This document shows, piece by piece, positions 155 through 64,000 of a stretch of DNA of 64,000 nt. The position numbers and the translations under genes were made by a program. Location of the stretch: IMG/VR virus record IMGVR_UViG_3300017977_000066, positions 62,001 to 126,000 of that record; one strand, written 5' to 3'. A model generated the notes under the pieces. That model worked only from the letters and a program-made list of their open reading frames with translations. It was not told the origin of the DNA and did no database searches. The stretch comes from a virus. Within the stretch, counting starts at the first letter, position 1, and every line of letters starts with the position of its first letter.

Positions 155-1198
155 ATGACAGGTGTACTACATTTAATAGCTACTGGAGGTTGCGGTATCA
201 ATCTCTTAGCCGATATAAAACCAGAGCTAGAGAAATTAGGAGGATCTTTCGCTAAGATCAAATATAGTTACATAGATACTACAGATAAGACCATACAAGC
301 TCACGCTGATCTAGCTGAAGATTTTACTCTTATCAAAAGCAAAAGAGCTAGTGTTGACTCTATAGATGGTATGGGCGGAGAGAGAGCTTCCAAAGAAGCT
401 ACTATGGATATTAATGCCAACATCAAAGAGTATGTAGATAAACTAACTAATGATGCTCATGTATACTATGTAGTCATATCTTCTGGTTCAGGTGCAAGTG
501 GTAGTCTTATATCACCACTGCTAACTAAAGAGCTTTTAGCTAAAGGTTGTAATACAGTAGTAACACTTGTTGGTGATAGTAGTAACCTATTAGGTTTACA
601 TAATACTATTAACACTATCTCTACATTCCAATCTATAGTTAGTGTAAAGAAAGGTAGAAAGAATCCAAGTGCTGCTTCTTTACCTATGATATATTATAGC
701 AATACTGTAGATGGTAATACAACCCCATCTACTGAAAAAGCTGTTAACGATAGAGTATTTAAGATGTTATCTATCTTAGCTATGTATACTTCTGGTTCTA
801 TACAAAATATAGATAATACAGATATGGGATTGTTCTTTAGAGCATCTAACTATAAATCTGTGGATGTTGATCCAGGTTTATATACACTAGGTGTGGCTAT
901 AGGTAGTCTTGATGATAAATTAACAGTTATGGCCAGAACAGTTATAAGTGAAGATGAGTCTGTAGATGTTAAGATACCATTAGTACATAACAAGATAGGT
1001 ATAGCTGCTGATGACTTTAAAGAGTATTTTAAAGAGCTTCCTCTATACCTACTTTTAAGAACTGGTATCATGAATGTTGAAGTTAGAAAGCTTAAAGAGA
1101 CATTAGATAGTATGGAAGAGAAGCGCCATACTAACTATGAAGACATCGAGTCTTTAGATAGATCTGAACTAGATGATGATCTAGGAGTAGTAGTTTAA
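155..1198 (+). CDS. phuZ: PhuZ-like phage tubulin (spindle cytoskeleton)
   Basis: This 347-aa protein looks like a PhuZ-family tubulin/FtsZ-like GTPase. In phiKZ-like phages PhuZ forms filaments that centre the phage nucleus and carry capsids. The sequence shows an N-terminal glycine loop (ATGGCGINLL, residues 9-18), a tubulin-signature-like T4 loop (SSGSGASGS, 109-117), the following LVGDSSNLLG segment, and an acid pair spaced D-x-x-D at 220 and 223 where PhuZ has its T7 catalytic acids. The C terminus is acidic and ends DDDLGVVV, close to the acidic knob of known PhuZ proteins. The T4 loop departs from the cellular GGGTGSG consensus, as it does in PhuZ. The start has an AAGGAG site, and the gene is monocistronic between a class A promoter and a strong terminator. 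Bacterial TubZ is the main alternative, but the acidic tail and jumbo-phage context favour PhuZ. Confidence 0.85.
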   Translation: MTGVLHLIATGGCGINLLADIKPELEKLGGSFAKIKYSYIDTTDKTIQAHADLAEDFTLIKSKRASVDSIDGMGGERASKEATMDINANIKEYVDKLTNDAHVYYVVISSGSGASGSLISPLLTKELLAKGCNTVVTLVGDSSNLLGLHNTINTISTFQSIVSVKKGRKNPSAASLPMIYYSNTVDGNTTPSTEKAVNDRVFKMLSILAMYTSGSIQNIDNTDMGLFFRASNYKSVDVDPGLYTLGVAIGSLDDKLTVMARTVISEDESVDVKIPLVHNKIGIAADDFKEYFKELPLYLLLRTGIMNVEVRKLKETLDSMEEKRHTNYEDIESLDRSELDDDLGVVV

Positions 1199-11323: not shown

Positions 11324-13125
11324 TATTGAAATTTAAAGAACTCTCTTTGATTGTTAACCATATCGTTAAGTAATAGGTATATCCTACCGTTCCTAGCCGA
11401 TATGAATTGTTGTAGTATAGCATCGCCATTATACCTTACTACTTTATTAGTTATCTTATAACCTTTCCTATCATAGATGAAGTAGTTAAGTCTATCAGTA
11501 GTATCTCCTAGCTTAAATACTACTACCTTATCATTTTTTAATCTAAAGCTTACTAAGTCTTTATTCTTAAAGTTAGTATGTATAGATAGTGCAGCCATTT
11601 TATAACCATCTAGTACATTAAAGAGCACACTCTTAAATGCATTAGTACCTTTAGGTAATATCACTACTTCAGTATCATTAACCTCAGATACAGAAACATC
11701 GGTTAGATCAGTATCACTAACATAAGTATTAACTAATGTAACTACCATAGCATCTAGGTCTAGTGTATAGAAGTTAACATTCTTACTATTAACTTTACTA
11801 ACACCTACTACATATAGGTTATCAGGCATCTCCATAACTTTCCTAATAACAGGAGTATCTATAACTATATCAGTAGTTAAGACAGTACCTAATGTTATAA
11901 TGTCTTTAAAAGGATCATAATCAAAACCAGTTAAAACTAATAAGCCATTACTATCTTTAGTTTGTATATAACCTTTAGTCTTAGTTACAAGTCTTAGAGT
12001 ATAATCTCCCGCGATACTTATGTTACTACCTTTTAATATAGTCATATGGTTATTCTGCTTATCGATGATATCGAATTCTAACTTATCGTCAGCCTGCTTG
12101 ATAGCTACTACGTTATTAAAGAACTCTTCTACATTAGCATTACCATCATAAATGTCGTTTTGATTATCACTTACTATAGATACAGGAGTTAGATTATTTT
12201 CATATACATAACCAAGATCAGGTATAAATTTCTCTTCTCTACCAGCTGTAGATATGAATATAAGATCAGTAGTAGTTTGTGTATTACCATTAGCATCAGT
12301 ATAGCTTAGATATAACTTAACTCTATATGACGAGTTTATAGATATGGTAACTGGTATAGTTAATGTATTACCAGCAGTATCTATATTAGCTAACTTAGTA
12401 CCATCTAAGGATAATAGTTCAGCACTATCTAAAGTAACAGCATATTCGGAAGTACTTAGTACTTTTAAAGTATTACTACCAGTGTAATCTAGGTCTAAAG
12501 TATTACCTTCTATGTTATAGAAAACTTTCTTAAGATAGTAAGCATCAAAAACAACTTTAGATAATGTAGAGTGTGAAGCTATGTTAACTGCCACTATGTT
12601 AAGTTTATAAATAGAAGCTAGGTCTACAGCATCAGAAGTTATAGTTATGATACCATCGTTATCATAGTAGTTAACTATCTCACCATACACTAATGTATTA
12701 CTATCATCATAGAGAGATATAGATGTACCTTCATATGCAACATTAGTCTTAGGCTCTGGTATAACTATAGTTATTTTCTCACCTGGTAAATATTCTACAT
12801 CTCTTATATACGGCTCCGAGATATTAAGCTCAGGTGTTAAGTAATCTTTAGTGTTAGACTCTTCGTTAAATATAGGTTTAGGTCCTATCCATACATCATT
12901 ACTTATACTAGCACCATCAGAGTCCTTAAGTCTCCTTAAAGATGATATATACCATATCTCACCTGTAGGGATTATTTTATCAACTTCCCAAAAGTCTAAA
13001 TAATCTGTACTTTCATCTATATTATCTTCTACTTCATTACCCTCTAGATCCCTAGTAAGTTTCCATGAGGTAGCATCATGTGTTAACTCACTATCATCTG
13101 GCCATTTAGGTATGTTAAATATCAT
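11323..13125 (-). CDS. Putative tail fibre/adhesin-type virion protein with Ig-like repeats, 600 aa
   Basis: A beta-rich protein with alternating hydrophobic strands and many T, S, N and D. Successive modules of about 90-100 residues between positions 90 and 400 look Ig-like (for example around EKITIVIPEP and NTLTIPVTISINSSYRVKL). The last 170 residues have repeated strand-turn patterns suggestive of a propeller or receptor-contact domain. It is probably an external tail or head fibre. A class B promoter lies just upstream, shared as a divergent region with the RecA-like gene. The Ig-like assignment is by eye and needs a profile or structure check. Confidence 0.5.
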   Translation of the reverse strand: MIFNIPKWPDDSELTHDATSWKLTRDLEGNEVEDNIDESTDYLDFWEVDKIIPTGEIWYISSLRRLKDSDGASISNDVWIGPKPIFNEESNTKDYLTPELNISEPYIRDVEYLPGEKITIVIPEPKTNVAYEGTSISLYDDSNTLVYGEIVNYYDNDGIITITSDAVDLASIYKLNIVAVNIASHSTLSKVVFDAYYLKKVFYNIEGNTLDLDYTGSNTLKVLSTSEYAVTLDSAELLSLDGTKLANIDTAGNTLTIPVTISINSSYRVKLYLSYTDANGNTQTTTDLIFISTAGREEKFIPDLGYVYENNLTPVSIVSDNQNDIYDGNANVEEFFNNVVAIKQADDKLEFDIIDKQNNHMTILKGSNISIAGDYTLRLVTKTKGYIQTKDSNGLLVLTGFDYDPFKDIITLGTVLTTDIVIDTPVIRKVMEMPDNLYVVGVSKVNSKNVNFYTLDLDAMVVTLVNTYVSDTDLTDVSVSEVNDTEVVILPKGTNAFKSVLFNVLDGYKMAALSIHTNFKNKDLVSFRLKNDKVVVFKLGDTTDRLNYFIYDRKGYKITNKVVRYNGDAILQQFISARNGRIYLLLNDMVNNQREFFKFQ

Positions 13126-13130
13126 AGCTA

Positions 13131-13156
13131 ATCCTTATAAACTAATTTTTTCAAAA
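13131..13156 (-). promoter_or_regulatory. Class B promoter of the 600-aa gene
   Basis: On the minus strand TTTTGAAAAAATTAGTTTAT is followed by AAGGA and then the ATG at 13125, a good match to the class B pattern. Confidence 0.65.
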
Positions 13157-13202
13157 GATACTCATGACCACACATATCCTTTATGGTTACTACTTCTTAT
13201 AA

Positions 13203-13219
13203 TGAAAATATAAAAGGAG
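13203..13219 (+). promoter_or_regulatory. Weak class B-like element and ribosome-binding site
   Basis: TGAAAATATAAAAGGAG leads into the ATG at 13225. The spacing between TGAA and AAGGAG is shorter than in typical copies. The AAGGAG decides the start of the RecA-like gene. Confidence 0.4.
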
Positions 13220-13224
13220 AAAAT

Positions 13225-14634
13225 ATGAATATTAAAGCACCTAACTTAATGTTCTCTAGACCACTTATAAATATAGGGATGCTGTCTGACATACCAACTG
13301 GTTCATTTATAACGGGTCCTAAGGGAGAAAGTATCTTGAATGGAGGTCTTTCAGGAGTTACTGGTATGGTTGGTACTGGTAATAGATTTAAGTCTACACT
13401 AGTTAACTATATGATGTTATCAGCTTCAGATAGGATGTCTGCATCTGGATTAGCAGCACCTATGCATACCTATGACACAGAAGACAACATGAGTCTTAAT
13501 GTGGATAGAATCAATAGTCTAGCAGAGAGATTCGTTAATATACCGGATGACCCACTCTATGACCAAGATGTATGGTCTTATATCTCTAAATCATCTATGA
13601 CAGCTGAAGAGTGGCTTAAACTACTTTATGAAGCTATAAGTAAGAAGATGGAAGATAAGAAACTACTTGTAACATATGACTCTTTTTACGATAGAGTTAT
13701 AAGAGCTAAGACTAAACTAATCAAACCTAGTTTTGTAGCTATAGATAGTTTAACAGAGTTAGAGTCAGCTACTACAGCTAATGTAGTTGTAGATGGTAAT
13801 ATAGAGTCTAGTAATACAGTATTCATGCAACAAGGATTATTTAAGACTAAACTTCTTAAAGATATGCCACGTATGTCTAATAAAGCTAATATCTATTTCT
13901 TCTTAACCGCACACGTTGGTAAAGAGATAGATATGGCTTCTGGTCCTTATGCTCCTAAACCTACAAGATCTCTACAGTTCATTAAGCAAGGAGATAAGAT
14001 AAAAGGTGTTAGTGACAAACTCTATTTCTTAACATCTCATTTGTGGCAATCTGCAGCTTCTAAACCTCTACTGAACCCATCTACTAAAGAACCTGAGTAT
14101 CCTCTTAATGAGAAAGACAATAAAACCGATCTTAACATAGTAAGTCTTATCATGCTTAGATCTAAATCAGGTCCTAGTGGTATAAGTATAGATGTTATAG
14201 TTAGTCAGAAAGAAGGACTATTACCATCGTTATCTGAGTTCCACTACATTAAAACTATGAAGTATGGCTTAGAGGGTAATCTTAGAAGTTATGCATTAGA
14301 GCTATATCCAGAATGTAAGCTTTCTAGAACTACAGTTAGGAAGAAGATAGATGCTGACATTAAGTTAAGAAGAGCTCTTAACATCACAGCAGAGTTATTA
14401 CAGATGACTGTCTATATGAAGCAGTATAGTAAATACTTCTGTACTCCTAAAGAGCTCTATGAGGGTATAAAAAGCAAAGGTTATGATTGGGATGATATCT
14501 TAGAGCATACAAGAGGCTGGTGGACTATCAAGAACTATGATACTGAAACTAAGTTCCTATCCACATTAGACTTATTAAAAATGAATGCTGATGAGTATAA
14601 ACCATTTTGGTTAAAAAATAAGAAAGGAAAATAA
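13225..14634 (+). CDS. RecA/UvsX-like recombinase ATPase
   Basis: A 469-aa P-loop ATPase. ATG at 13225 is preferred over an in-frame TTG-type start at 13183 because AAAGGAG lies ahead of it. Walker A is GTGNRFKST (residues 50-58), reminiscent of the T4 UvsX loop, and Walker B is FVAID (170-174) followed by SLTELES. The C-terminal 120 residues look like a helical DNA- or partner-binding domain. It is expected to form filaments on single-stranded DNA for recombination-dependent replication or repair. phiKZ also encodes a UvsX-like protein. A DnaB-like helicase is a weaker alternative. The following gene overlaps by one base, so at least those two are coupled. Confidence 0.65.
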   Translation: MNIKAPNLMFSRPLINIGMLSDIPTGSFITGPKGESILNGGLSGVTGMVGTGNRFKSTLVNYMMLSASDRMSASGLAAPMHTYDTEDNMSLNVDRINSLAERFVNIPDDPLYDQDVWSYISKSSMTAEEWLKLLYEAISKKMEDKKLLVTYDSFYDRVIRAKTKLIKPSFVAIDSLTELESATTANVVVDGNIESSNTVFMQQGLFKTKLLKDMPRMSNKANIYFFLTAHVGKEIDMASGPYAPKPTRSLQFIKQGDKIKGVSDKLYFLTSHLWQSAASKPLLNPSTKEPEYPLNEKDNKTDLNIVSLIMLRSKSGPSGISIDVIVSQKEGLLPSLSEFHYIKTMKYGLEGNLRSYALELYPECKLSRTTVRKKIDADIKLRRALNITAELLQMTVYMKQYSKYFCTPKELYEGIKSKGYDWDDILEHTRGWWTIKNYDTETKFLSTLDLLKMNADEYKPFWLKNKKGK

Positions 14635-21415: not shown

Positions 21416-21952
21416 ATGTTACAACCTTTAAAATACGATCAGGTTACTGGACAACCAGTTGTCTTTAGAGATGACCAGACTGGCAGGCTCTATATGTTGG
21501 ATCAAATGGGTAACCCATATGAGATAGACCGTAATGGTAACCCAATGCAGCAGCAACAACAACAAATGCAGATTAACCAGGGATATGGTCATCTGCAACA
21601 AAGACAACAACCAAATATACCGCGTTATAACAATGGCGGCTACAACCAGAACCAAAGTGCTGGTATGGTAGGTTTAGGTAATAGTATACCGCGTACTGAC
21701 ACAAGTGATTTAGTAGGAACTAACTCTCCAGCTTCTTATAGAGGTAGAGAACAAGTTAAAGAACCGGAGACGGTTTTTAACCAACCAGCTAAAGAGCGAC
21801 CTAAGGTAGATGAAAGTAAGAGTCTCATCAACTATGAACCAGAGCCAGGTTCTGAATTAGAACCGCTCATAGATACCAGTGTTAAACACATAGATGTAAT
21901 CGTCAATGATGATGCTAGAACATATAAAATCTTAACAGTTAACAAAGGATAG
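21416..21952 (+). CDS. Q/N/P-rich low-complexity protein, 178 aa
   Basis: The first 30 residues contain repeated tyrosine/asparagine motifs (YDQVTGQPVVFRD, then RLYMLDQMGNPYEIDRNGNP) that look like short YD-type repeats. Residues 43-85 are prion-like, with runs of Q and with G, N, Y and R. The last 80 residues are acidic and proline-rich, ending in a beta-prone motif. No enzyme motif is present. A disordered, multivalent protein with its own class A promoter suggests a scaffold or condensate role in the infected cell, which is inference. A strong AGGAG precedes the ATG. Confidence 0.75.
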   Translation: MLQPLKYDQVTGQPVVFRDDQTGRLYMLDQMGNPYEIDRNGNPMQQQQQQMQINQGYGHLQQRQQPNIPRYNNGGYNQNQSAGMVGLGNSIPRTDTSDLVGTNSPASYRGREQVKEPETVFNQPAKERPKVDESKSLINYEPEPGSELEPLIDTSVKHIDVIVNDDARTYKILTVNKG

Positions 21953-25250: not shown

Positions 25251-25493
25251 TTAAGCAAGTGGTACCAAGACTTTTCTTTTTACGATAGCCTCTAGTATAC
25301 CTTCTCGTTCTATAACATCTCTGCTAAAACTCATATTCATAACATTAGTATTTAGACGCTCTGGTATAAATATACCTGATAAAAGAAATATCTCTTTTAA
25401 ACTGTTATTAAATCCAATAGAATCACCTAGTTTTCCTAGATTACCAGAAGAACTTAAACCGCCCATAAACACCTTTACTGGAGAATCACTCAT
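25251..25493 (-). CDS. Small protein in the tail-fibre operon, 80 aa
   Basis: A short protein with a glycine/serine-rich N-terminal half and a helical C-terminal half. It overlaps the upstream gene by four bases (ATGA). No family is recognised. Confidence 0.6.
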   Translation of the reverse strand: MSDSPVKVFMGGLSSSGNLGKLGDSIGFNNSLKEIFLLSGIFIPERLNTNVMNMSFSRDVIEREGILEAIVKRKVLVPLA

Positions 25494-26533
25494 ATATCAT
25501 CCTTTAACTTTTTGGTTTTTTCATTAAGTATATATCTAACATTAAGATTAGGTACATCAAAATATCGTTTTCTTTTAGCTAACCCTAACCATATCTTAAG
25601 TTCGTTAATGAGATCATGGTTCATCCTAGCATCTCCTATCCCTAATAGAAAGCTAAAATAACTAACTCTAGATAATAGTAATAACCATGAGCCTTTAACA
25701 CCTGTATAAACATTAGGTATCTTATAAGTATCTAACATGTTACCATTAAGTAGATCTGGTAATATACTTAGTAGTTCTTGATAGTCTATCTTCTTATTCT
25801 TGTTGATTTCATCTATGTACCAAGATTGTATACTAGTCACTAACTTACTTATATCCTTAACAAAGAAAGGATTAAAGTTAACGAAGCTAGATAACTCCTT
25901 ACCCTCATAGATAGCATTATACCTATTAAACATACTATGCCTAAATATGTCTGGTATAAGGTTAGTGATAACCTCTTCATATATAAACTTAGCTGGATCT
26001 ATACTAAAGGTATCTGGATGCTCTTTCATATTCCTATTAGCCCATCTATGATAATCTCTTACTAGGTTAACTATATTTATAGCATAGGTATTAAAATCAT
26101 CAGCATCAAATTCTACATTGTATCTCTTAGGATGTGTTAAGAATAGCATGTCCATAGTACTATATATGCAAGTACAAGTAGTGTCTTTATCTTCTGTTAT
26201 AATAAAGAACTCATCCATATTATCAAATACTGTATCTCTAAAAGGCTTACTATTAAAATCTATACCAGTATTGAAGCCTAATGTATTAGCTAGCCTCATG
26301 TACTTCTCTTGTGCAGAGAACATGGCTGAGCTTTCAGTATCATGTATATTTATCTCTAACGACTCTAGTAATGTAACTAGTATATTAGGTCTTCTAACAT
26401 AGAAGCCACTCTGCTTATAATAGTTATCTAGAACACTGATAAGATTCTCTATGAGACTTGTAGCATAGTTTAACTTATAATGTTTTATCTTACCTACCCT
26501 AACTTCATAATCTTGTGTTAACATTCCTATCAT
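25490..26533 (-). CDS. First gene of the tail-fibre operon, 347 aa
   Basis: A helical, aromatic-rich protein without catalytic motifs, with two possible starts (26533 and an ATG nine bases inside). It is directly downstream of a class B promoter and leads an operon ending in fibre-type genes, so a baseplate or fibre-attachment role is likely. It is otherwise unknown. Confidence 0.6.
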   Translation of the reverse strand: MIGMLTQDYEVRVGKIKHYKLNYATSLIENLISVLDNYYKQSGFYVRRPNILVTLLESLEINIHDTESSAMFSAQEKYMRLANTLGFNTGIDFNSKPFRDTVFDNMDEFFIITEDKDTTCTCIYSTMDMLFLTHPKRYNVEFDADDFNTYAINIVNLVRDYHRWANRNMKEHPDTFSIDPAKFIYEEVITNLIPDIFRHSMFNRYNAIYEGKELSSFVNFNPFFVKDISKLVTSIQSWYIDEINKNKKIDYQELLSILPDLLNGNMLDTYKIPNVYTGVKGSWLLLLSRVSYFSFLLGIGDARMNHDLINELKIWLGLAKRKRYFDVPNLNVRYILNEKTKKLKDDI

Positions 26534-26760: not shown

Positions 26761-26791
26761 AAATTAATTTAAACCCTATAAGGAGTCTGGA

Positions 26792-28600
26792 ATGAGACGA
26801 GGAATAACAATAGACGACAATGTTAATAACACGGGTCTTGATGACCTGCTAAACAATGAAGAAGTAGGTAACACAAGTACCGGTACTGCTGATGATGGCC
26901 AACTGCAAGTAGTAGGTCTATCTGGTATGGATTCGTTAATGCTTGAAGATAGTGACCAAGAGTCACTTGGTAAATATGCAGTAAAATCTGCAGAGATACT
27001 AAAAGAGGGATACTTAGATATCCGTGTTATGAAGATGGATAAAGAGAAGTTCGGTCTTGGATTTAGCTTCGTACTTTATAGTACTAAAGACAATGCTGGT
27101 AAAGTATACTACTTCTTAGCTCTTTTAGAGAAAACAGGTAGACAACCATTAGAAGTAAAACAAATCGTAAATGAGTTAAATGTTAAGAACAACACATCTA
27201 TCTTAGTTACAAGTGATGCTTTTGATGATACTGTTTATGCTATTGCTGAGACTATGCTTAAGAAAGCATATAAAGATATTACATCTCTTAGAAACCTAGA
27301 GGGTGTTGTTATCCCTAGTAGTTCAGATGTAGAAGCTACTGCTGAAGTTATGAGTAGATATGTTCATAACCGTATGGTAGTTGAAAGTGAGATCACTTCT
27401 GGTAAATCAGCAGACCTTAACTTTAAAGCATTGAGGGCTATTGGTAGAAATAGCAATACTAACTTAGACATTGCTTTCAATACTGGTTTAACTATTAATA
27501 CTGCAGGTAGATCTATTAGATCGGATTTCAATATCGAATCTAATATCGCATCTAATAGTTATGTTAGAAGTATGCATGATATCTCTGGTAAGAAGCGTAT
27601 CGCTACCGTATCTGGATACCTAGAGTATTTAGTATCTGATAAAGTTAATGAGTATACGATGCAGTCCACTAAAGTTGCAACACCTATCCTTATCTTAAAC
27701 GAGTTCATGGGTAAAGCTAGTTCACTTAATTATGTATTAACTTCTATTGTTAACTCTACTATCTTTAGTAGCAGACCTATCCTTAGAAACTTAATCGTAG
27801 AGAAAGATGCTGGCCCATTAAATGTACTATTTAACTATGGTGGTGATGCTTCTAAGCCTGGTGACAAACTAAGCTTCAAAGATGAAAAAGCTAAGCCTGA
27901 GATAGTTAATGATATCATCAGACAACATGTTACATCTACACCTATCGTTGCTATCGAGGTAGAGTTATTCGGTTCTGACTATTCACACATGGCTCCATTC
28001 GTAGCATTAGCAAGTGATGAAACTCGTATGGCTGCTACTGAAGACATCTTAAAAGGTGCTAGTGAGTTGGTTGGTTCTAAAATGGAAACATCAAGTGTTC
28101 TGGGTGATGAGTCTTCACTAGTTCCTATCGGAGAGTATCTAGATGCTGATGGTAATGTTAGAGATCTTCGTGAAATCGACTTAGCGTTCATCTGTACTTA
28201 TAGTAACGATCAAGCACTTATCTTTGATTGGATCTACTCTACTTTAACTCCTGCTATGTGTAGAAGTATAACTAGTAAAGATCCGTATCTACTTAAACTA
28301 GAAGTGATTAACAAACTTGCAAGTATGTTAAACTTCAAACCTGTTATCACTGGTAAAGCTGTTCGTATCCCGCTAAGTGGGATGTTCGTAGAAGAGTTAA
28401 CTCGTAAAGCTATGCAAGCAGGATATAACCCAGCTCCAACGAATGATGCTATCGGTTACAATGATTTCAATAATCTACAAATCGTAAGCCAAGCATACAA
28501 TGGTTCTACATTAGCTAATACTGGATTTGGTATGGGTAACTCATATTCAAATGGTAGAAGCCAAATGCCTGGTGTATATACTGGTTATCAACGCCGCTAA
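26792..28600 (+). CDS. chmA: Chimallin-like phage nucleus shell protein
   Basis: A 602-aa protein interpreted as ChmA, which self-assembles into the proteinaceous shell around replicating jumbo-phage DNA (201phi2-1 gp105 is about 631 aa). The layout fits: a disordered acidic N-terminal segment (about 1-60), a folded core (about 62-545), and a disordered G/N/Q/Y-rich C-terminal tail (about 546-602). Disordered ends of this kind mediate lattice contacts in known chimallins. The C-terminal core contains GEYLDADGNVRDLREIDLAF, a following ALIFDW, and ITGKAVRIPLSGMFVEEL, which agree in order with recalled chimallin sequences. CGT arginine codons, a class A promoter and a strong terminator indicate abundant, non-late expression. 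The main alternative, a major capsid protein, fits less well because of both disordered ends and the promoter class. The assignment rests on recalled similarity, not a search. Confidence 0.75.
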   Translation: MRRGITIDDNVNNTGLDDLLNNEEVGNTSTGTADDGQLQVVGLSGMDSLMLEDSDQESLGKYAVKSAEILKEGYLDIRVMKMDKEKFGLGFSFVLYSTKDNAGKVYYFLALLEKTGRQPLEVKQIVNELNVKNNTSILVTSDAFDDTVYAIAETMLKKAYKDITSLRNLEGVVIPSSSDVEATAEVMSRYVHNRMVVESEITSGKSADLNFKALRAIGRNSNTNLDIAFNTGLTINTAGRSIRSDFNIESNIASNSYVRSMHDISGKKRIATVSGYLEYLVSDKVNEYTMQSTKVATPILILNEFMGKASSLNYVLTSIVNSTIFSSRPILRNLIVEKDAGPLNVLFNYGGDASKPGDKLSFKDEKAKPEIVNDIIRQHVTSTPIVAIEVELFGSDYSHMAPFVALASDETRMAATEDILKGASELVGSKMETSSVLGDESSLVPIGEYLDADGNVRDLREIDLAFICTYSNDQALIFDWIYSTLTPAMCRSITSKDPYLLKLEVINKLASMLNFKPVITGKAVRIPLSGMFVEELTRKAMQAGYNPAPTNDAIGYNDFNNLQIVSQAYNGSTLANTGFGMGNSYSNGRSQMPGVYTGYQRR

Positions 28601-28694: not shown

Positions 28695-28700
28695 ATGGTT

Positions 28701-29651
28701 ATGTTAGATGATGTTTATACTGGTACATTAGGTACCTTTTTTAATAGAGAAGAACTTGTATTTAAGCTTAATGAGCTTATGACTAAAGTAGGAGGTAGCT
28801 TATCTTACGAAGTAGTAGAGCAGAGGACTAAAGTAGTTATATTAACTGGTGTTAATGATACGGAGCAAGATGTACCTAGTTTCCAACACCCCTTAATATT
28901 TAAAACTATCAGAGGTGAAGATGCGGTAGCTATAGATATGAGACCATTTATGAAGTCTAAACTAGTAGACATGATAACTGTTAGAGAGAAGCTACAAGAT
29001 AAGTATAATGGTATGCTCATGCTCTATAGGCTTATATTAACTAAGTTATTATTAGATGGTGAAACATTCTTGTTAGGGTCTCTACATAACCCTACCATGG
29101 AAGCTTTTAGTTCTATAGTTAAAACTACAACTTCTATGTTACTATATGACGAAAGTATTAAAGAGCCTGTAGAGTTAGTATCTGATCTACATTTTATATC
29201 TATGGATATGACTGAAGATGTTAAGGATAAAACTAAGATCATAGAGTTATTACCTAGAGATAAAGTAGCTAAGATACTAAAAGGTGATTATAGCTATATC
29301 TATAATAAAATACTAGATGATACTATAACACTACCTAGTACTACTATAGGTAGTTTAACCACTAATATACGAGAAGCTATAAATAATAAGAGAGCTAAGG
29401 GTTTAACAGCTGATATTCTTATGCAATCTTTATCTAGAGGGTTCTATAGTCTAGATAGTAGAGATCTTGCTATAGCTATGGTAGAAGATAAACCTACTTT
29501 AACTGCATTACTATATATGACTATAACTGAAAGCATTAATTCTAAAGGTGCATTTAATAAAGTTATACATGGTAATAGTAGATTTATTAAACCAAAAGAG
29601 TTCGCTAAATCTTTTTTAAATATTGTAAATTCACAATTAGTAGATGGGTAG
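28701..29651 (+). CDS. Putative late virion protein, 316 aa
   Basis: The frame is open back to 28527 inside ChmA, but the class B promoter and AAGGA place the start at 28701. The protein is helical in its C-terminal two thirds, with no known motif. Insulation from ChmA by a terminator and a different promoter class suggests a late structural or assembly role. Confidence 0.65.
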   Translation: MLDDVYTGTLGTFFNREELVFKLNELMTKVGGSLSYEVVEQRTKVVILTGVNDTEQDVPSFQHPLIFKTIRGEDAVAIDMRPFMKSKLVDMITVREKLQDKYNGMLMLYRLILTKLLLDGETFLLGSLHNPTMEAFSSIVKTTTSMLLYDESIKEPVELVSDLHFISMDMTEDVKDKTKIIELLPRDKVAKILKGDYSYIYNKILDDTITLPSTTIGSLTTNIREAINNKRAKGLTADILMQSLSRGFYSLDSRDLAIAMVEDKPTLTALLYMTITESINSKGAFNKVIHGNSRFIKPKEFAKSFLNIVNSQLVDG

Positions 29652-30184: not shown

Positions 30185-32365
30185 ATGGAATTAAAGGAAG
30201 ATGCCACAGAGTATTTTAAGTTTAAACCAGAGGAGTATAAGAGAGATGTTAGCCCTTTAAAACACTATATGGATATCTCTAGTTTTGTATTAGAGAAGAT
30301 GAACCATACTAGAGAACCTAAGGCTAGTATAAAAGAGTATATAAAAGAAAAACAGAGATTTAGTAACCCACTAGTATATTTCAAGCAGAGAGATATGGAT
30401 GGCAAGATAAGTAAACAAGCAGTTGGACTTAAGGATTATCTAGATGATGTTGTAAGAGATAAGAATATCATAGTGCCATCATTCACTGTCTACTTCCCAC
30501 CATCTAAGAAACCCTCACTTCACTCTGAGTTCATGGATGTGAATACTAAAGAGAGATCTGTACATAAGAAGCTAGCCTTTAAGTATAAGATGGGTAAGAT
30601 GTGGGATAAGTTTAATTACCACAATACCATACAGAAGACTAAGAAGATATTTAATAATAGTTTATCAGGAGCTTATGCTTCAGCAGGTACTATATTAAAT
30701 AACCCTAGTAGTCACTATACTCTAACTAGTATAACAAGAGCTATCTCTGGTATAGGTAACGCAGTATCGGAATCTCTTATCATAGGCAATAGACACTATA
30801 GGAACCCTGATGTCATGATAGCCCACCTAGCTACTATAGCTCAGAATGCAGATCTTACTAAGATAGAGTATGTTGTTAATAAATATCATTTAGCAACACC
30901 AGATGCTCCTGAGGTTATGAACTACTTATTAAGAAGTAGTGCTAAGTACTGGAAAGATACTGAAAAAGAACTTGTTATTTTTAATTTCTTAAAATCACTT
31001 AGTAAATATGAAAGAGCTGCTGTACTATACCATATAGATCTTAATGCGATTAGAGAGTTCAATGATACTTTCATGAGGAGAGTTATAGGTAAGTTCCTTA
31101 ACTATGAAGATAAGCATCATGACGAAGCTACTTCTAATAAGATCATAGATGCTGCTTCAGAGATGACTCGTAGTATATCTATCTATAGTTTATCAGATAG
31201 CCTTAAAGGTAAGGTTAAGGGTAAAGGTGATTATACTAAAGAAGATCTATCTAGTCTAGCTTCTCTTATAGAGCATACTGAACAACTTCTAAAATACCTA
31301 GGAGAGATCGTAAATGCATTCTTCATAACAGATGTAGTACCTGCTAATATATCTAGGATAAAAGATATGGTTAGAGAGGTTATCGTATTATCAGATACAG
31401 ATAGTACATGCGCTAGTTATGAAGACTGGCCTACTTGGTATTTTGGTAAGAGAACATTAGACTCTAAAGCTATCTCTATAAGTAGTCTTATACTATTCAT
31501 TAACTCTGAAGTTATGGATCACTTCATCAAACTCTTCGCTGTTAACCTTAATATCAGTTACGAGAAAGCCCAGATACTAGAGATGAAGTCAGAGTTCATG
31601 TTCAAACTTTTTGTTGCTACTAATGTAAGTAAACACTACTATGCAACTACTGATATACAAGAAGGTAATATCTTTGATCCTGAATCCCTACATGATATCT
31701 TAGAGAAGAAAGGTGTTAATCTTATCGTACCTAATGCATATGGTCCTATAAGGAAACTCATAGATGATGTTATGGTAGGTATCATGCATGATGTAGGTAC
31801 CTTAGGTACCATAGAGCTTACTAAGTATCTTAAGATAGTATTAGGGGCTGAACAACTTATCATCAGTAAGATTAAAGATGCCTCTCCAGATATATTTAAG
31901 ACAGAGAAGATCAAAGATGGGAGTGTTTATAAGAACGAACCAGCTAAGTCTCCTTTCTTACATTATCTATTTTGGAATGATATCTTCGGTAGTAAATATG
32001 GTAAAGCTCCTGACCCTACTTATATGGCTATTAAGGTACCACTTAAGATCAACACTAAGAAAGATATGTCTGACTTCATAGAGAACTTAACCGACCCTGT
32101 ATTAAGGGATAAGATAAAAGAGTTCTTAAAAAAATACAATAAAGACTATATAGGTGTTCTAAGGCTACCTCTTATAAAGGTATACGAGCATGGTATACCA
32201 CCTATCTTCAAAGACTGGATAGATATAAAACGAGTTGTTAAAGATAACTGTAATGCACTTTATATAGTACTAGAGACCATAGGGTATTTTATTAAGCCTG
32301 ATGAGATACTGAGTGACCGTGAGTTAAAATTAATAGAGCATAAGGAAATAATAGATGAAAGATAA
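30185..32365 (+). CDS. B-family DNA polymerase, C-terminal half (motifs B and C)
   Basis: A 726-aa protein carrying the fingers and palm end of a family B DNA polymerase. Motif B is visible as KKIFNNSLSGAYAS (residues 153-166) and motif C as LSDTDST (402-408), with the DTDS catalytic aspartates. SKHYYATTD (482-490) corresponds to the KKRY-type motif before the thumb. The exonuclease domain and palm motif A (DxxSLYPS) are absent, so the other half must come from another gene outside this window, giving a split polymerase. About 235 residues separate motifs B and C, much longer than usual, including a GNRHYRNPD segment. AGGAGG precedes the ATG. The dNMP-kinase-like gene overlaps its end by 11 bases. 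Confidence 0.75.
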   Translation: MELKEDATEYFKFKPEEYKRDVSPLKHYMDISSFVLEKMNHTREPKASIKEYIKEKQRFSNPLVYFKQRDMDGKISKQAVGLKDYLDDVVRDKNIIVPSFTVYFPPSKKPSLHSEFMDVNTKERSVHKKLAFKYKMGKMWDKFNYHNTIQKTKKIFNNSLSGAYASAGTILNNPSSHYTLTSITRAISGIGNAVSESLIIGNRHYRNPDVMIAHLATIAQNADLTKIEYVVNKYHLATPDAPEVMNYLLRSSAKYWKDTEKELVIFNFLKSLSKYERAAVLYHIDLNAIREFNDTFMRRVIGKFLNYEDKHHDEATSNKIIDAASEMTRSISIYSLSDSLKGKVKGKGDYTKEDLSSLASLIEHTEQLLKYLGEIVNAFFITDVVPANISRIKDMVREVIVLSDTDSTCASYEDWPTWYFGKRTLDSKAISISSLILFINSEVMDHFIKLFAVNLNISYEKAQILEMKSEFMFKLFVATNVSKHYYATTDIQEGNIFDPESLHDILEKKGVNLIVPNAYGPIRKLIDDVMVGIMHDVGTLGTIELTKYLKIVLGAEQLIISKIKDASPDIFKTEKIKDGSVYKNEPAKSPFLHYLFWNDIFGSKYGKAPDPTYMAIKVPLKINTKKDMSDFIENLTDPVLRDKIKEFLKKYNKDYIGVLRLPLIKVYEHGIPPIFKDWIDIKRVVKDNCNALYIVLETIGYFIKPDEILSDRELKLIEHKEIIDER

Positions 32366-49889: not shown

Positions 49890-51200
49890 ATGGCTAAAAC
49901 ATTACCCATAACATTAGACAACGAAGTAAATGATCTCTTAACCAAGTCTAAAGAGTTCATCATGCCAGAGCCAACACTTATCATACATACAGAAGATGGT
50001 GATGTGACTATAGTACATTTTAATAGCATAGATGTAGAACGTAACTACACTACTAACTTATCAGATATAATATATGTTAACTTTAATGCAGGTCTTGGTT
50101 TTGCTAGTAAGGTTCTATATAAGCATAGAGATAAACTAGAAGCTACCGTTAAGCTAAAGTTCTCTAATAAGAAGATACAACAGAGAAGATTCAAATTTGT
50201 ACTCATGACTAAGTTCGAGGATATACATGATAGCTCCATGAGTAAGATAAGTCAAGAAGACCTTGATACCCAGGATTATATAGAGATAAAAGCACAATGT
50301 ATAGATACTAAGCTTCTTAAGTTCAAGAATGAATATGTAGAAGGTATCTTCCATGATATGGATCTCAGGAAAGTAATGAAGAATATTTTCAGTAAGAAGA
50401 TGAGAGAGGCTGGTACTGATAGCTACATCAATGTCTATGTTCCTAAGAATGTGAAGAGCTATGAGAATATCTTCATAGAGCCATTCACTAAGTTTGTAAG
50501 ACTACCATTTATATTTCAGAATGATAAGTATGGTCTTTATGATCATGGTGCTGGTATATACTTCAGTAATATCTCAGAAGCTAGCGAGTCTAAATATGAT
50601 GTAGATATATTCCCTATATTTGATTATGAGAGGTTCGATGCTGAGGCTAAGAGACCTAAGCTTATTATCATAAATCCTACTAAGTCACATATGAGTAAAC
50701 ATGAGATAGATTTCTACTATAAAGATGGCATCTATAAATCATTAGTATCTAATGTTAAGTTCCAGCATGATAGCGAGGATAAGAGATATGATACTGGTAA
50801 TGGTTTCATCATAGAGGATTCTGGTAACACCATCAACCAGAGTCTACTTGATATAAAAGACGATATAGTAAAATATGCAAATGACCAATCTTTCTCTATA
50901 ACCAAGCTAGATGAAACTAGGAGTTATAATAATCTAGTAGAGACAGGCGGAGATGATAATCTCTATAAATATAATAGCACTCTTAATAGGCTACAAGGTG
51001 TTATAGGTAGTGTCATGTTACCTAAGGTTAATCCCGAGATCATTTATCCAGGCATGCCTTTTAAATACATGTTCAACAAGGATGGTAAGGTTGCTTCTAC
51101 TACAGGAGTCGTACAAGGATTACAATATAGCTATGACTTCATCAATAAGACTACAGTTGTCATGCTGGTATGTATATTTAAGAGATTAATAAAGGAATGA
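49890..51200 (+). CDS. Putative baseplate hub protein (gp27-like), 436 aa
   Basis: A beta-rich protein with features reminiscent of T4 gp27/VgrG-type hub domains: an early VERNYTTNLSDIIYVNFNAG strand-turn region, a DMDLRKVMKNIFSKK helix at about 157-171, EPFTKFVRLPFIFQNDKYG (about 195-213), and a terminal IYPGMPFKYMFNKDGKVA, a pattern seen near the end of hub-like proteins before an OB-type strand. The hub joins tube to spike. The assignment rests on fold-level resemblance. Confidence 0.5.
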   Translation: MAKTLPITLDNEVNDLLTKSKEFIMPEPTLIIHTEDGDVTIVHFNSIDVERNYTTNLSDIIYVNFNAGLGFASKVLYKHRDKLEATVKLKFSNKKIQQRRFKFVLMTKFEDIHDSSMSKISQEDLDTQDYIEIKAQCIDTKLLKFKNEYVEGIFHDMDLRKVMKNIFSKKMREAGTDSYINVYVPKNVKSYENIFIEPFTKFVRLPFIFQNDKYGLYDHGAGIYFSNISEASESKYDVDIFPIFDYERFDAEAKRPKLIIINPTKSHMSKHEIDFYYKDGIYKSLVSNVKFQHDSEDKRYDTGNGFIIEDSGNTINQSLLDIKDDIVKYANDQSFSITKLDETRSYNNLVETGGDDNLYKYNSTLNRLQGVIGSVMLPKVNPEIIYPGMPFKYMFNKDGKVASTTGVVQGLQYSYDFINKTTVVMLVCIFKRLIKE

Positions 51201-51201
51201 T

Positions 51202-51534
51202 ATGTTAAAATTTGTAGGTGATAATAGACACTTTACCATCATAGTTAAGAGTGAGAAGGAACTACTTGATGTTATGAATCTTAAGCTAAGCATGCTTCTT
51301 AACGAAGATAATATGGATATATATAGTAAGGTCTATAAGACTAAGATGTATGAGACTATCTTAGAGAACATCATCATGGAAGAGCTAGCTAAAGCCAATG
51401 TAATAACTGAGAAGAATAAGTCCTATATATTTTCGCTATTACTACAGGATGAGAAGTATCAGTATCTGGTAGCTAATCTAGAACTAGGAGACCAAGATAA
51501 AGGTCTTATAATAAACAAAACGTTACAAAACTAA
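51202..51534 (+). CDS. Hypothetical small tail protein, 110 aa
   Basis: It begins one base after the hub candidate, with AAGGAATG overlapping its stop. A helical, acidic protein that ends the tail cluster. A hub-associated chaperone or structural subunit is possible; no motif is seen. Confidence 0.6.
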   Translation: MLKFVGDNRHFTIIVKSEKELLDVMNLKLSMLLNEDNMDIYSKVYKTKMYETILENIIMEELAKANVITEKNKSYIFSLLLQDEKYQYLVANLELGDQDKGLIINKTLQN

Positions 51535-51535
51535 T

Positions 51536-51561
51536 CATATGGTAGAACTTTCTACCATATG
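51536..51561. terminator. Hairpin between convergent genes
   Basis: CATATGGTAGAA and TTCTACCATATG form a perfect 12-base stem with a two-base centre. Minus-strand coding begins within three bases. Confidence 0.8.
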
Positions 51562-51563
51562 TA

Positions 51564-52166
51564 TTAAAATTCTAATTCGTCTAGAAAGTCATCATCGTTG
51601 CTGTTGATGCTGTTAGTTTCAGTAGCTTCTTTAATACTACTATCTTTATTTATTCTGTTTTTATAGTACTCATAGAACTCAGTACTATATTTTCTATATT
51701 CAGCTAGCTTCTCACCATCTTTAGACATACCTTTTACAACAGCCTTAGTTACTGCTTTTAAATTAATGTCAGCTGCTCTAGGATTGGATTCTTTTACCTG
51801 CTCGAACGAAACTATAGCATTCCTTAGTTTAGCCTTTTCTAGCCCCTCTATGTTAGTACTAGTTATCATAGGAGGAAGTTTGAAGATAATTTTACTAGCA
51901 TCATTATCATCTACTACTAAAATCGTAGTCCTATATCCACCTACAAGATCTTTTAAGTTATTAATGAATACCATGTTATTAGCATCATTATGTTCTAGCT
52001 CTTTTAGTATATAAGGGAGTAGATAAATTTCAAAAGTAGATAAGCTTATTTTAGCTTCATCTATATCTATGTCTTTGAAGCTCTTACTAAGTTCAGCTAT
52101 CTCAGACATCTCCTCTGCTTGATTGTTCTCTACTATTTGTTGCATCTCTTCGTCTGGCTTAAACAT
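51564..52166 (-). CDS. Hypothetical acidic protein, 200 aa
   Basis: Helical and acidic, with a D/E-rich end (DDDFLDELEF) and a central beta-prone segment TTILVVDDND. It overlaps the next gene on the minus strand by eight bases, indicating coupling. No family is recognised. Regulatory or assembly-chaperone roles are both possible. Confidence 0.65.
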   Translation of the reverse strand: MFKPDEEMQQIVENNQAEEMSEIAELSKSFKDIDIDEAKISLSTFEIYLLPYILKELEHNDANNMVFINNLKDLVGGYRTTILVVDDNDASKIIFKLPPMITSTNIEGLEKAKLRNAIVSFEQVKESNPRAADINLKAVTKAVVKGMSKDGEKLAEYRKYSTEFYEYYKNRINKDSSIKEATETNSINSNDDDFLDELEF

Positions 52167-53709: not shown

Positions 53710-53739
53710 TATATACTTTTTAACATCTCTTAACTGTAA

Positions 53740-53762
53740 TGAAAATAAAAAACATAAAAAGG
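53740..53762 (+). promoter_or_regulatory. Weak class B-like promoter
   Basis: TGAAAATAAAAAACATAAAA followed by AGGA, ahead of the ATG at 53770. It lacks the T-rich upstream stretch. Confidence 0.4.
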
Positions 53763-53769
53763 ATAGAAA

Positions 53770-54414: not shown

Positions 54415-54417
54415 CAC

Positions 54418-54467
54418 ATATAGATGGACTCTATGAGTCTGTCTATATACTTTCATACTTTTTTTAC
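54418..54467 (+). terminator. Terminator after the SSB candidate
   Basis: An interrupted stem (54418-54431 pairing with 54435-54448, GACTC/GAGTC at its core) is followed by CATACTTTTTTT. The T run also belongs to the next class A promoter. Confidence 0.7.
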
Positions 54468-54497
54468 TTGTATATTACTAATATGAGCCAAAAGCTC
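54451..54497 (+). promoter_or_regulatory. Class A promoter with perfect GAGC/GCTC stem-loop
   Basis: TTTCATACTTTTTTTAC lies 17 nt upstream of TATATTAC (54471-54478). The stem is GAGC (54485-54488), loop CAAAA, GCTC (54494-54497). It drives the 54.5-56.9 kb operon. Confidence 0.82.
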
Positions 54498-54522
54498 TAA
54501 TAAAAATTAAGGAGGCTGATAA

Positions 54523-56288: not shown

Positions 56289-56304
56289 TCAAAAAGGAAA
56301 GTAA

Positions 56305-56919: not shown

Positions 56920-56951
56920 GGTACTCCTATCTTGGTATATATTTTTTTTTT
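56911..56951 (+). terminator. Terminator overlapping the stop codon
   Basis: CCAGGATAGG and CCTATCTTGG pair around GTACT, followed by TATATATTTTTTTTTTT. The stem includes the end of the zinc-ribbon gene. Confidence 0.8.
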
Positions 56952-56995: not shown

Positions 56996-57018
56996 TAATA
57001 AATATAACAGGAGATATA

Positions 57019-58705: not shown

Positions 58706-58728
58706 AAATAATAAAAACAGGAGAAAAC

Positions 58729-60276
58729 ATGTATCGTAATGGTAATGCATATGGTAATACACAAGCCACTAATGTGGTGATGAAGAAGTTTTTCTTGATA
58801 GAATCAGATGGCTATCAAGACCAATATATAAGACCTTATAACATGGAAGCTGGTTATGAAGATCTCAATAAGGTTAAAGATATAGTTACAAGATCAGTAC
58901 AGCTTAACAGTGTAGGTAATATAGGACAAGAGGTTAGCAATAGTATCTCTAATATACTTACACCATCTAGTATGGTTATAGGTGCGGCTAATATAGCTGG
59001 TGAGGGCTGGGGTTCTAAGAGATTTAAATTTGTGATGCTCATAGAGGAGTCTAGTAATACTAGTAACTCAGTCATCATCAACTATGTACAAGGTTATACG
59101 GATCAGTTAGGCATCAGCTATAAAGATACACTAGATCCTAACATGAGATTCTTTGTTAATACTGTTAATGTATTAAGGAAGACATTTGATAGGAATACTG
59201 GTGGGTTTAGTATCGTACCTGTAAAATCCTATAACTCTGTACATGATGAGTTAAACATGCTGGATTATGCGGATACAAGATTCGTTCCTAACTCAGGACC
59301 ATCTTATACACCAGATCATGAAGCATTAAAGTTAGCTAGACCCGAAGATATCTTAGTTAATGCATCTACTCTATCGGCTGCAGATAGCGACACCATGATA
59401 TTCTCATCAGTGGGTACTGTTAATAACTTTAACATAGTAGATAATGAAGACATATTGCCAACTCAGCATCTATCCAAAACTATCTCTAGCGCTGTTAGTA
59501 ACTCTATGAATGATTCTGCATTTACAGATGATGTAGATATGTATGGTAATCTACAGAATAGTAATGTTATTAATGCTATGTTAGGTGATACACTAAGTTG
59601 TAGTGCAGAGCAGATAACCATCTTCAAAATGATCTTAAGGACTACAGGCTCGCTTAGACCTAATATGTCACTGTCAGAGATCAACGATATGTTCGCTCCG
59701 GCTCCAGTAGTACCAGATGTTATGCTTGGTAACGATGTGGCTATAAGAACTGGTGGTACAACTACACCCTATGAGCTATCTGGTACTGAAACTGAAAATA
59801 CATATGGTGCTGATATAGAGACTAGAAAATCTGTCTTAGTACATGAAGCTGTTATAACAACTCTTAACGATTCGCTACTATCACATATAGTGTTCGAGAT
59901 AGACAACATGACAGGCCAGCCTTTGTGTAACATCTTACATGCTGGTTCAGAGATAGAAGGTCTTAATACTATAGCATATAGTAATAAGTTCACAAGCATG
60001 TTCATGAGTAGGATATGGAATAGCTTATCTGAGAACAATATGATACAAGTTAAGATATTAGTTTCATCATTGTTAGTATCCGATACTACCATCTCTATAT
60101 CTATAGATGGTAGACCTCCAGTGGTATATAGATATCCTACATTTGCTAATAGTAAGTATCTACCTATTATCATGAATAACGAGAACCTAGACGATCTTAG
60201 TAGATCTTATACTACAGTTATATCTGAAGCTATAACCTCTAGTAAAGAAGCTATGAGTAATGCTTCTAGATTTTAA
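58729..60276 (+). CDS. Conserved-looking jumbo-phage protein, 515 aa
   Basis: It contains the segments GWGSKRFKFVMLIEESS and NYVQGYTDQLGISYKD, then LDPNMRFFVNTVNVLRKTFD, a combination I associate with hypothetical proteins of other jumbo phages. Residues 215-330 are low in complexity and rich in D, S, N and V. The C-terminal part is alpha/beta. Its class A promoter sets it apart from structural genes despite a structural-looking composition. Function is unknown. Confidence 0.68.
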   Translation: MYRNGNAYGNTQATNVVMKKFFLIESDGYQDQYIRPYNMEAGYEDLNKVKDIVTRSVQLNSVGNIGQEVSNSISNILTPSSMVIGAANIAGEGWGSKRFKFVMLIEESSNTSNSVIINYVQGYTDQLGISYKDTLDPNMRFFVNTVNVLRKTFDRNTGGFSIVPVKSYNSVHDELNMLDYADTRFVPNSGPSYTPDHEALKLARPEDILVNASTLSAADSDTMIFSSVGTVNNFNIVDNEDILPTQHLSKTISSAVSNSMNDSAFTDDVDMYGNLQNSNVINAMLGDTLSCSAEQITIFKMILRTTGSLRPNMSLSEINDMFAPAPVVPDVMLGNDVAIRTGGTTTPYELSGTETENTYGADIETRKSVLVHEAVITTLNDSLLSHIVFEIDNMTGQPLCNILHAGSEIEGLNTIAYSNKFTSMFMSRIWNSLSENNMIQVKILVSSLLVSDTTISISIDGRPPVVYRYPTFANSKYLPIIMNNENLDDLSRSYTTVISEAITSSKEAMSNASRF

Positions 60277-62791: not shown

Positions 62792-64000
62792 ATGTTAGAA
62801 CAAAACATACCGTATCTAAATGAAGTAAAACATAACTTCATAGAGCAAGATCCGAACTACCAGTTAGATGCTAAATATTTTAGTGCATCAGCTATGAACT
62901 CATTCGCAGATCACTCTAGTTCATCAAGATCAGTGATGTTCTCATCTCACATGTCACAACCAGTAGTTATAGACGACCCAGATATCAACATGGTGCAGTC
63001 AGGATTAGAATATGACTTCGCTAAGTATACCATATCTAAGTATGTAGATAACCCATCTGAAGTAGTAGCCATAATAAAGAGATATAGATCTCTAGATAGG
63101 AACGATGAGTCTAGTACCGCAGAAACTATTGTTATGTTCAAAGATTTAACTACGGGTGTACTAGATGCTTTAGAGATACCTACCTTTAATAAATTACACC
63201 CATATTTTGGATATAAGTTCAATACTGAGAAGCTATCGGAGTTATCTATAGGTGATACTATAACTAGTGATGATAAACTAGGAGCCTCACCTTCTAACAT
63301 AGGTGATCATGACTATGGTTATGGTAAAGACTTAAATGTAATACAGATGACCATACCAGCTGTTGATGAAGATGGTTTTGTTATAAGTGAATCTTGTGCT
63401 AAGAAATTCCAGTTCAGTGTTTTTGATACTAGAACCATAGAAGTAGGTGAGTCTAGTTTTCTACTAAACCTGTATGGAGAAGATGGTGAGTATAAACCAT
63501 TACCAGATATAGGTGAAAAGATAAGTGATACTGGAGCTATAGCCGTTATAAGGAACTATGATGAAGATTTCTCACCTGTAGCTATGGGTATAGAAGATGT
63601 TAAGAAGTTTAACCCTATATTCGATAAGGCTGTATATGGTAGACATCCTAGATCTACTATAGTTGACATCAAGATCCATAAGAACAACAAGAGGAAGAAA
63701 ACACTTCCTACTGGTACTGAGAAGTATTGTGAGGAGTATAGCGATAAGCTAGTTAACTTCTACCAGCAGATCATCAACACCTATGATAGTATTAATGATG
63801 CTAACAAAAGATCGTTAGGTAGAGAGGTGGAAGTTGGTAATACTTTATACACACTATTATCAGAAGCATATGGTGTAACTGAAGCTAGTAAACCAAATTC
63901 AAAACTACGTTATAAATATAGAAAAGATAATGTAGATCTGTATAGAATAGAAGTCACTACTGAGACTCATTTCGATAGGCTGTTTATAGGAGCAAAGATT
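62792..64000 (+). CDS. RNA polymerase beta subunit (C-terminal-half type), 3'-truncated by the window
   Basis: 403 residues are visible, and the frame continues past the right edge. SRSVMFSSHMSQPVV (about 45-59) aligns with the beta segment NRALMGANMQRQAVP near the rifampicin region, and NVIQMTIPAVDEDGFVISES (182-201) with the NVLVAYMPWxGYNFEDAIxISE segment. It begins close to those motifs, so it represents the C-terminal half of a split beta subunit, as in phiKZ-like phages. Its class A promoter suggests the nonvirion (infected-cell) polymerase rather than the packaged one. AGGAG precedes the ATG. Catalytic beta-prime motifs are not expected here. Confidence 0.8.
   Translation, partial: MLEQNIPYLNEVKHNFIEQDPNYQLDAKYFSASAMNSFADHSSSSRSVMFSSHMSQPVVIDDPDINMVQSGLEYDFAKYTISKYVDNPSEVVAIIKRYRSLDRNDESSTAETIVMFKDLTTGVLDALEIPTFNKLHPYFGYKFNTEKLSELSIGDTITSDDKLGASPSNIGDHDYGYGKDLNVIQMTIPAVDEDGFVISESCAKKFQFSVFDTRTIEVGESSFLLNLYGEDGEYKPLPDIGEKISDTGAIAVIRNYDEDFSPVAMGIEDVKKFNPIFDKAVYGRHPRSTIVDIKIHKNNKRKKTLPTGTEKYCEEYSDKLVNFYQQIINTYDSINDANKRSLGREVEVGNTLYTLLSEAYGVTEASKPNSKLRYKYRKDNVDLYRIEVTTETHFDRLFIGAKI

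What the first reader, a model, noticed from the sequence alone, without database searches (positions are those of the whole stretch)
26792..28600. Candidate chimallin with a divergent Q/N/Y/G-rich C-terminal tail
The folded core and the order of late motifs fit chimallin. The C-terminal 55 residues are unusually rich in N, G, Q and Y and end in RR. In known chimallins the terminal segments bind neighbours in the lattice, so a different tail could mean different lattice geometry or a different partner.
Basis: partly seen in the sequence, partly recalled or inferred. Interest (0 to 1): 0.78.

Follow-up and report, generated by a model that had tools for sequence, protein, structure and literature searches.

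The report
Ordinary-tailed chimallin from unsampled phage lineage
The gene encodes chimallin, the protein that builds the 'nucleus' some large phages put around their DNA; its Q/N/Y/G-rich tail, flagged as odd, is what chimallins in general have, so the news is the deeply branching phage lineage rather than the tail.

Summary
The ORF at 26792-28600 (+, 602 aa, good ribosome-binding site) is a true chimallin (ChmA). PHROG 'nuclear shell protein' matches at E=8e-24. A profile of the window protein and seven relatives matches a profile of 14 known chimallins (probability 100%, E=6e-40). An AlphaFold2 model (pLDDT 74, pTM 0.75) matches only solved chimallins (E=7e-23; TM to 0.77).

The tail is real: N+G+Q+Y is 45% of the last 55 residues, against a mean of 19% for ORFs in the window. 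But it is not divergent. Fourteen known chimallins have 31-49%, half have a basic residue among the last six, and all 22 examined have an aromatic among the last five. Within the clade the tail has the family anatomy: a conserved block (554-579, CTS1-like), a variable linker, and a short aromatic/basic end (CTS2-like). Nothing supports a different lattice or partner; sequence alone cannot prove docking.

What is less ordinary is the phage. This chimallin and seven from IMG/VR contigs form a fully supported clade outside all 14 known chimallins sampled (13-17% identical to the window protein). The window's contig encodes PhuZ, PicA, multisubunit RNA polymerase, DNA polymerase and terminase homologues.

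The parts
26780..26785 (+). Shine-Dalgarno AAGGAG, 6 nt before the ATG
   Evidence: sequence
26792..28600 (+). chmA, chimallin (major nuclear shell protein), 602 aa
   Evidence: PHROG 4795 E=8.4e-24; hhalign clade vs known chimallins E=6.3e-40; Foldseek vs PDB chimallins E=7e-23
26792..26905 (+). N-tail, residues 1-38, poorly conserved, predicted disordered
26906..26956 (+). NTS-like segment, residues 39-55 (QLQVVGLSGMDSLMLED region), aligned with the solved NTS (GGINSQF...) of 201phi2-1; positional inference
   Evidence: MAFFT alignments
26957..28429 (+). folded two-domain core, residues 56-546
   Evidence: model pLDDT mostly 80-95; TM 0.64-0.77 to solved chimallins
28451..28528 (+). CTS1-like block, residues 554-579 (IGYNDFNNLQIVSQAYNGSTLANTGF), as conserved in the clade as the core; functional equivalence inferred from position
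   Evidence: no significant letter match to solved CTS1
28529..28564 (+). variable linker, residues 580-591
28565..28597 (+). CTS2-like C-terminal end, residues 592-602 (last 11 residues, ...PGVYTGYQRR), aromatic/basic
25490..26533 (-). homologue of phiKZ gp52, the gene upstream of chimallin on the opposite strand in known phages
   Evidence: phmmer E=1.9e-12; PHROG 3938; phiKZ order
30185..32365 (+). phage DNA polymerase (phiKZ gp50 homologue)
   Evidence: PHROG 2927 E=1.4e-167
155..1198 (+). PhuZ tubulin
   Evidence: PHROG 4733 E=4.7e-38; phiKZ gp39 E=1.1e-9
58729..60276 (+). PicA (nuclear protein importer, phiKZ gp69 homologue)
   Evidence: phmmer E=1.2e-27; PHROG 3141
62867..64000 (+). RNA polymerase beta subunit part (phiKZ gp71 homologue), runs past the window end
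   Evidence: E=9e-41

Best explanation
The gene is chmA of a nucleus-forming phage. Shown here: the protein has the chimallin two-domain fold, sits in a chimallivirus gene neighbourhood, and has disordered termini with a conserved block, a variable linker and a short aromatic/basic end. Inferred from the solved 201phi2-1, Goslar and phiPA3 lattices: protomers form tetramers held by the N-terminal segment, and the C-terminal tail crosses to neighbouring tetramers, its first block (554-579) and last ~10 residues (592-602) docking on two further protomers. The N/G/Q/Y richness is the loose, low-complexity linker chemistry common to chimallins, which lets the sheet bend; it is not a special feature. 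The shell would enclose the replicating phage DNA, with PicA importing proteins and PhuZ positioning the nucleus.
For: PHROG 4795 'nuclear shell protein' E=8.4e-24 over residues 86-584. Profile of 8 clade sequences vs PDB: phiPA3 PhuN 3e-13, Goslar 2e-8, 201phi2-1 1.3e-5. hhalign clade vs 14 known chimallins: probability 100, E=6.3e-40, 494 columns. Model pLDDT 74.1, pTM 0.75, residues 1-54 and 551-602 disordered. Foldseek: all PDB hits with E<=0.001 are chimallins, best 7.0e-23, TM (target) up to 0.77; named BFVD hits include chimallins of cultured phages such as Eowyn and Noxifer. Tail anatomy: block 554-579 identity 0.42 and BLOSUM 2.25 in six close members, like the core (0.38-0.45); linker 0.22. 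Aromatic in the last five residues in 22/22 chimallins vs 15/38 window ORFs. Neighbours PhuZ, PicA, gp52, DNA polymerase in the window; nvRNAP beta', gp71, gp80-like RNAP subunit and terminase homologues in the same contig. One copy only in the contig. Roles of NTS/CTS: PMC9365700, PMC9938867; PicA a core gene conserved in all known ChmA phages: PMC11087766.
Against: The tail does not match the solved CTS1 by sequence better than shuffled tails do (989 of 3000 shuffles score as well), so two-site docking rests on position, conservation and family precedent. The same test also fails for most other known chimallins, so it has little power. No multimer was modelled. ChmB (phiKZ gp2) was not found in the contig, but ChmB diverges fast (PMC10643120) and the contig may be incomplete.
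Confidence: 0.9

Rival explanations
1. One reading: a chimallin whose tail is so different that it builds another lattice geometry or binds another partner.
For: CTS2 is known to differ between Goslar and 201phi2-1 (PMC9365700). The tail has no significant letter match to the solved CTS1, and the clade motif NLQx[VI]xxAY is not seen in the solved proteins. A weak short helix is predicted at 562-570 (pLDDT < 50).
Against: Composition, aromatic/basic end and block-linker-end layout are those of the family. Most known chimallin tails also fail to match the phiKZ-type CTS1 profile, and Goslar keeps the same architecture despite a different CTS2 (PMC9365700).
Confidence: 0.07
2. Not chimallin: an HK97-like capsid protein or other virion protein with a low-complexity tail.
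For: Single-sequence search of the PDB gives only E=0.063 and Pfam gives nothing.
Against: PHROG, profile, hhalign and fold tests all give chimallin only; no HK97-like protein among the PDB matches listed.
Confidence: 0.01
3. A chimallin paralogue or decayed copy rather than the shell protein of this phage.
For: None found.
Against: Single copy in the 155 kb contig; intact frame with a good ribosome-binding site; orthologues with conserved cores in 7 other contigs.
Confidence: 0.02

Closest known systems
Chimallin of Pseudomonas phages 201phi2-1 (gp105), phiPA3 (PhuN) and phiKZ (gp54)
   Same: Fold (TM up to 0.77), length, disordered termini, N/G/Q/Y-rich tail with aromatic end; gp52 homologue upstream of chmA as in phiKZ
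   Different: About 14% identity; NLQx[VI]xxAY block in the tail; in the window and its two closest relatives, genes other than the nvRNAP beta' subunit follow chmA
Chimallin of Escherichia phage Goslar (solved)
   Same: Best fold match by E-value (7e-23); a group I intron is annotated at the nvRNAP beta' gene in Goslar and one is found in a clade relative
   Different: About 14% identity; tail ends in NLF without terminal arginines
Chimallins of Burkholderia phage FLC9, Klebsiella phage Eowyn, Erwinia phage EaH1
   Same: Among the best tblastn hits in annotated phages (22-29% over part of the protein); G-rich tails with arginine near the end
   Different: Outside the clade in the tree; 16-17% identity over the whole alignment
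IMG/VR contigs 3300002242_000758, 3300026518_000007, 3300026512_000005, 3300026382_000006, 3300026488_000011, 3300003873_000049, 3300026488_000012
   Same: Same clade (100/100 support); 57-29% identical chimallin. Of nine clade records (window's own included) six carry PhuZ and seven PicA
   Different: Contigs of uncertain completeness; hosts unknown

Membership tests
Chimallin (ChmA) | Two-domain chimallin fold | tested here: met
   Foldseek E=7.0e-23 to 7sqt, TM (target) 0.77 to 7sqs; hhalign E=6.3e-40
Chimallin (ChmA) | Extended, flexible N- and C-terminal segments outside the core | tested here: met
   pLDDT < 50 for 1-54 and 551-602; conserved block, linker and end in the tail
Chimallin (ChmA) | NTS/CTS1/CTS2 dock on neighbouring protomers | not testable with these tools
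   Only single chains can be modelled; sequence match to the solved CTS1 not significant
Chimallin (ChmA) | Self-assembly into tetramers and a square lattice | not testable with these tools
   Needs purified protein or tomography
Chimallin (ChmA) | N/G/Q/Y-rich tail with aromatic residue near the end (a trait observed here across the family, not a published definition) | tested here: met
   45% vs 31-49% in 14 known; aromatic in last five in 22/22
Chimalliviridae (nucleus-forming phages) | Encodes chimallin and PicA (picA conserved in all known chmA phages, PMC11087766) | tested here: met
   PicA 58729-60276, E=1.2e-27
Chimalliviridae (nucleus-forming phages) | Phage-encoded multisubunit RNA polymerases | tested here: met
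   homologues of nvRNAP beta' (E=1.6e-59), gp71 (9e-41) and gp80 (2.4e-38) in the contig
Chimalliviridae (nucleus-forming phages) | PhuZ tubulin (accessory, about two thirds of members, PMC10299810) | tested here: met
   155-1198, E=4.7e-38
Chimalliviridae (nucleus-forming phages) | Conserved order of core genes within blocks (PMC12908238) | tested here: inconclusive
   gp65-gp71 order mostly kept at 52621-64000, gp52-chmA kept, but nvRNAP beta' is ~75 kb away from chmA
Chimalliviridae (nucleus-forming phages) | Genome over 200 kb | tested here: inconclusive
   Contig 154,896 bp, possibly a fragment; longest clade contig 186,213 bp
HK97-like capsid protein | HK97 fold | tested here: not met
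   No such protein in the PDB matches listed

The most novel reading that the evidence does not exclude
In this deep clade the C-terminal tail docks by a different structural solution (a short helix built on the NLQx[VI]xxAY block and a basic end) from the solved chimallins, giving a shell with other inter-tetramer geometry or permeability.
Probability: 0.08. Interest if true: 0.6.

Novelty: new member of a known kind. Interest (0 to 1): 0.32.

Why it matters
It turns a supposed oddity into a family rule: the low-complexity N/G/Q/Y tail with an aromatic near the end is general to the chimallins compared, and in a distant clade one block of it is conserved as strongly as the core. That narrows which parts of the tail to test in assembly work. 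The clade also adds distant homologues; adding two of them raised the structure model from pLDDT 51 to 74. It shows nucleus-forming phages well outside the cultured lineages sampled here. That chimallin phages are diverse beyond cultured ones has been reported (cited in PMC13282480), so the lineage may not be new to specialists.

Tried and rejected
HK97-like identity: rejected by fold search. Pfam: no match. Single-sequence PDB search: too weak alone. Matching the tail to the solved CTS1 by a letter profile: not significant for the window or for most other known chimallins, so it cannot decide. GTDB genomes: no relative of chimallin or DNA polymerase found, so no host lead (few patterns were used, so this is weak). 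Search for papers naming the metagenomes: none held. The first structure model with six sequences was poor (pLDDT 51) and was replaced by the eight-sequence model. ChmB: phiKZ gp2 not found, uninformative. Rfam on the window: nothing. A cited paper on chimallin diversity (PMC12625630) is not held, so its overlap with this clade could not be checked.

Full report
WHAT IS THERE. The ORF at 26792-28600 (+) is 602 codons with an ATG start, preceded by AAGGAG at 26780-26785. Its last 55 residues, APTNDAIGYNDFNNLQIVSQAYNGSTLANTGFGMGNSYSNGRSQMPGVYTGYQRR, are 45% N+G+Q+Y. The same measure over 46 ORFs of the window averages 19% (sd 8%); this tail ranks second, after 60301-61683.

IS IT CHIMALLIN? Yes. 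hmmscan gives one PHROG family, 4795 'nuclear shell protein', E=8.4e-24, residues 86-584; Pfam has nothing and a single-sequence PDB search gives only phiPA3 PhuN at E=0.063. Relatives were collected from IMG/VR, giving eight sequences in alignment A7. A profile of A7 finds phiPA3 PhuN (3e-13), Goslar (2e-8) and 201phi2-1 chimallin (1.3e-5) in the PDB. Profile-profile comparison with 14 chimallins of cultured phages gives probability 100% and E=6.3e-40 over 494 columns, residues 50-558. The AlphaFold2 model from A7 has pLDDT 74.1 and pTM 0.75, with residues 1-54, 551-602 and two short inner stretches below 50. Foldseek against the PDB lists nine entries with E<=0.001, all chimallins, best 7.0e-23, TM normalised to the target up to 0.77; named BFVD hits include chimallins of cultured phages such as Eowyn and Noxifer.

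IS THE TAIL DIVERGENT? No. Chimallins of 14 cultured phages (phiKZ, phiPA3, 201phi2-1, Noxifer, Goslar, RAY, SA002, Proteus 10, LucasX, FLC6, FLC9, Eowyn, EaH1, BONAISHI) have tails of 31-49% N+G+Q+Y, mean 41%, sd 5%. Half have R or K among the last six residues. All 22 chimallins compared have F, W or Y among the last five residues, against 15 of 38 window ORFs over 200 aa (the 22 are related, so this is not a p-value). Within six close clade members, residues 554-579 are as conserved as the core (identity 0.42 vs 0.38-0.45), the linker 580-591 is not (0.22), and the last 11 residues are only partly conserved (0.27). This block-linker-end layout is that of 201phi2-1 chimallin, where CTS1 is residues 590-611 and CTS2 622-631, with unresolved linkers, and both bind other protomers (PMC9365700; phiPA3: PMC9938867).

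LIMITS. A profile of five solved or aligned CTS1 segments scores the window tail no better than shuffled tails (989 of 3000), but it also fails on most other known chimallins. The equation of 554-579 with CTS1 is thus by position and conservation, not by proven homology of letters. No multimer could be modelled.

THE PHAGE. The window is 62001-126000 of a 154,896 bp IMG/VR record. It encodes PhuZ (155-1198), PicA (58729-60276), the gp52 homologue next to chimallin, DNA polymerase, SbcD, tail sheath and UvsX. Elsewhere in the contig are nvRNAP beta' (12184-13512), gp71 (124867-126018), a gp80-like RNAP subunit (148537-149652) and terminase (49954-52056). PicA is a core gene conserved in all known chmA phages (PMC11087766). 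In the tree the window protein and seven IMG/VR chimallins form one side of a 100/100 branch, separate from the 14 known ones, with 13-17% identity of the window protein to them. Of nine clade records eight carry chimallin, six PhuZ, seven PicA. In most cultured phages whose downstream region was displayed, nvRNAP beta' is the next gene or nearly the next after chimallin; in the window it is about 75 kb away, and in the two closest relatives (L018, L002) other genes follow chimallin. In one distant clade member (G004) it lies about 1.4 kb behind, so the separation is not shared by the whole clade.

MECHANISM. Shown: fold, disordered termini, conserved tail block, gene company. Inferred from the solved lattices: tetramers through the N-terminal segment, inter-tetramer links through the tail, flexible linkers allowing curvature, DNA enclosed, PicA-mediated import. 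The tail's composition is best read as linker chemistry plus an aromatic anchor.

VERDICT. A genuine chimallin with an ordinary tail, from a deep and little-sampled branch of nucleus-forming phages. New member of a known kind.

Noticed in passing
L052:398-773 (contig 3300026488_000011) and L051 (contig 3300026382_000006): The nvRNAP beta' gene is split at the same point in two clade phages; L052 has a group I intron there (RF00028, E=2.8e-19) and L051 has a 445-aa ORF in the gap that looks like an HNH homing endonuclease (by eye). Goslar's record also annotates a group I intron at this gene, and phiKZ has an HNH gene just behind it.
   Followed up: partly
all chimallins compared; window 28583-28597: 22 of 22 chimallins have an aromatic residue among the last five, a possible general C-terminal anchor.
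   Followed up: partly
window 60301-61683 and 21416-21952: The phiKZ gp70 homologue next to PicA has a Q/N/G/Y-rich stretch (64% over 55 residues), and so has the 178-aa ORF 21416-21952; both are richer than the chimallin tail.
   Followed up: no
window 28695-28701: The ORF listed from TTG 28527 overlaps chimallin probably only because of a false start; homologues and the PHROG match begin about residue 57-59, so the gene probably starts at 28695 or 28701.
   Followed up: partly
G000:C1:12184-13512 vs window 26792: nvRNAP beta' lies ~75 kb from chimallin, unlike in the cultured chimalliviruses examined, where it follows chimallin closely.
   Followed up: partly
L002 5793-7394: In this relative two genes that look like a MazG-type protein and a ThyX (by eye, not searched) sit between chimallin and the next conserved gene.
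   Followed up: no
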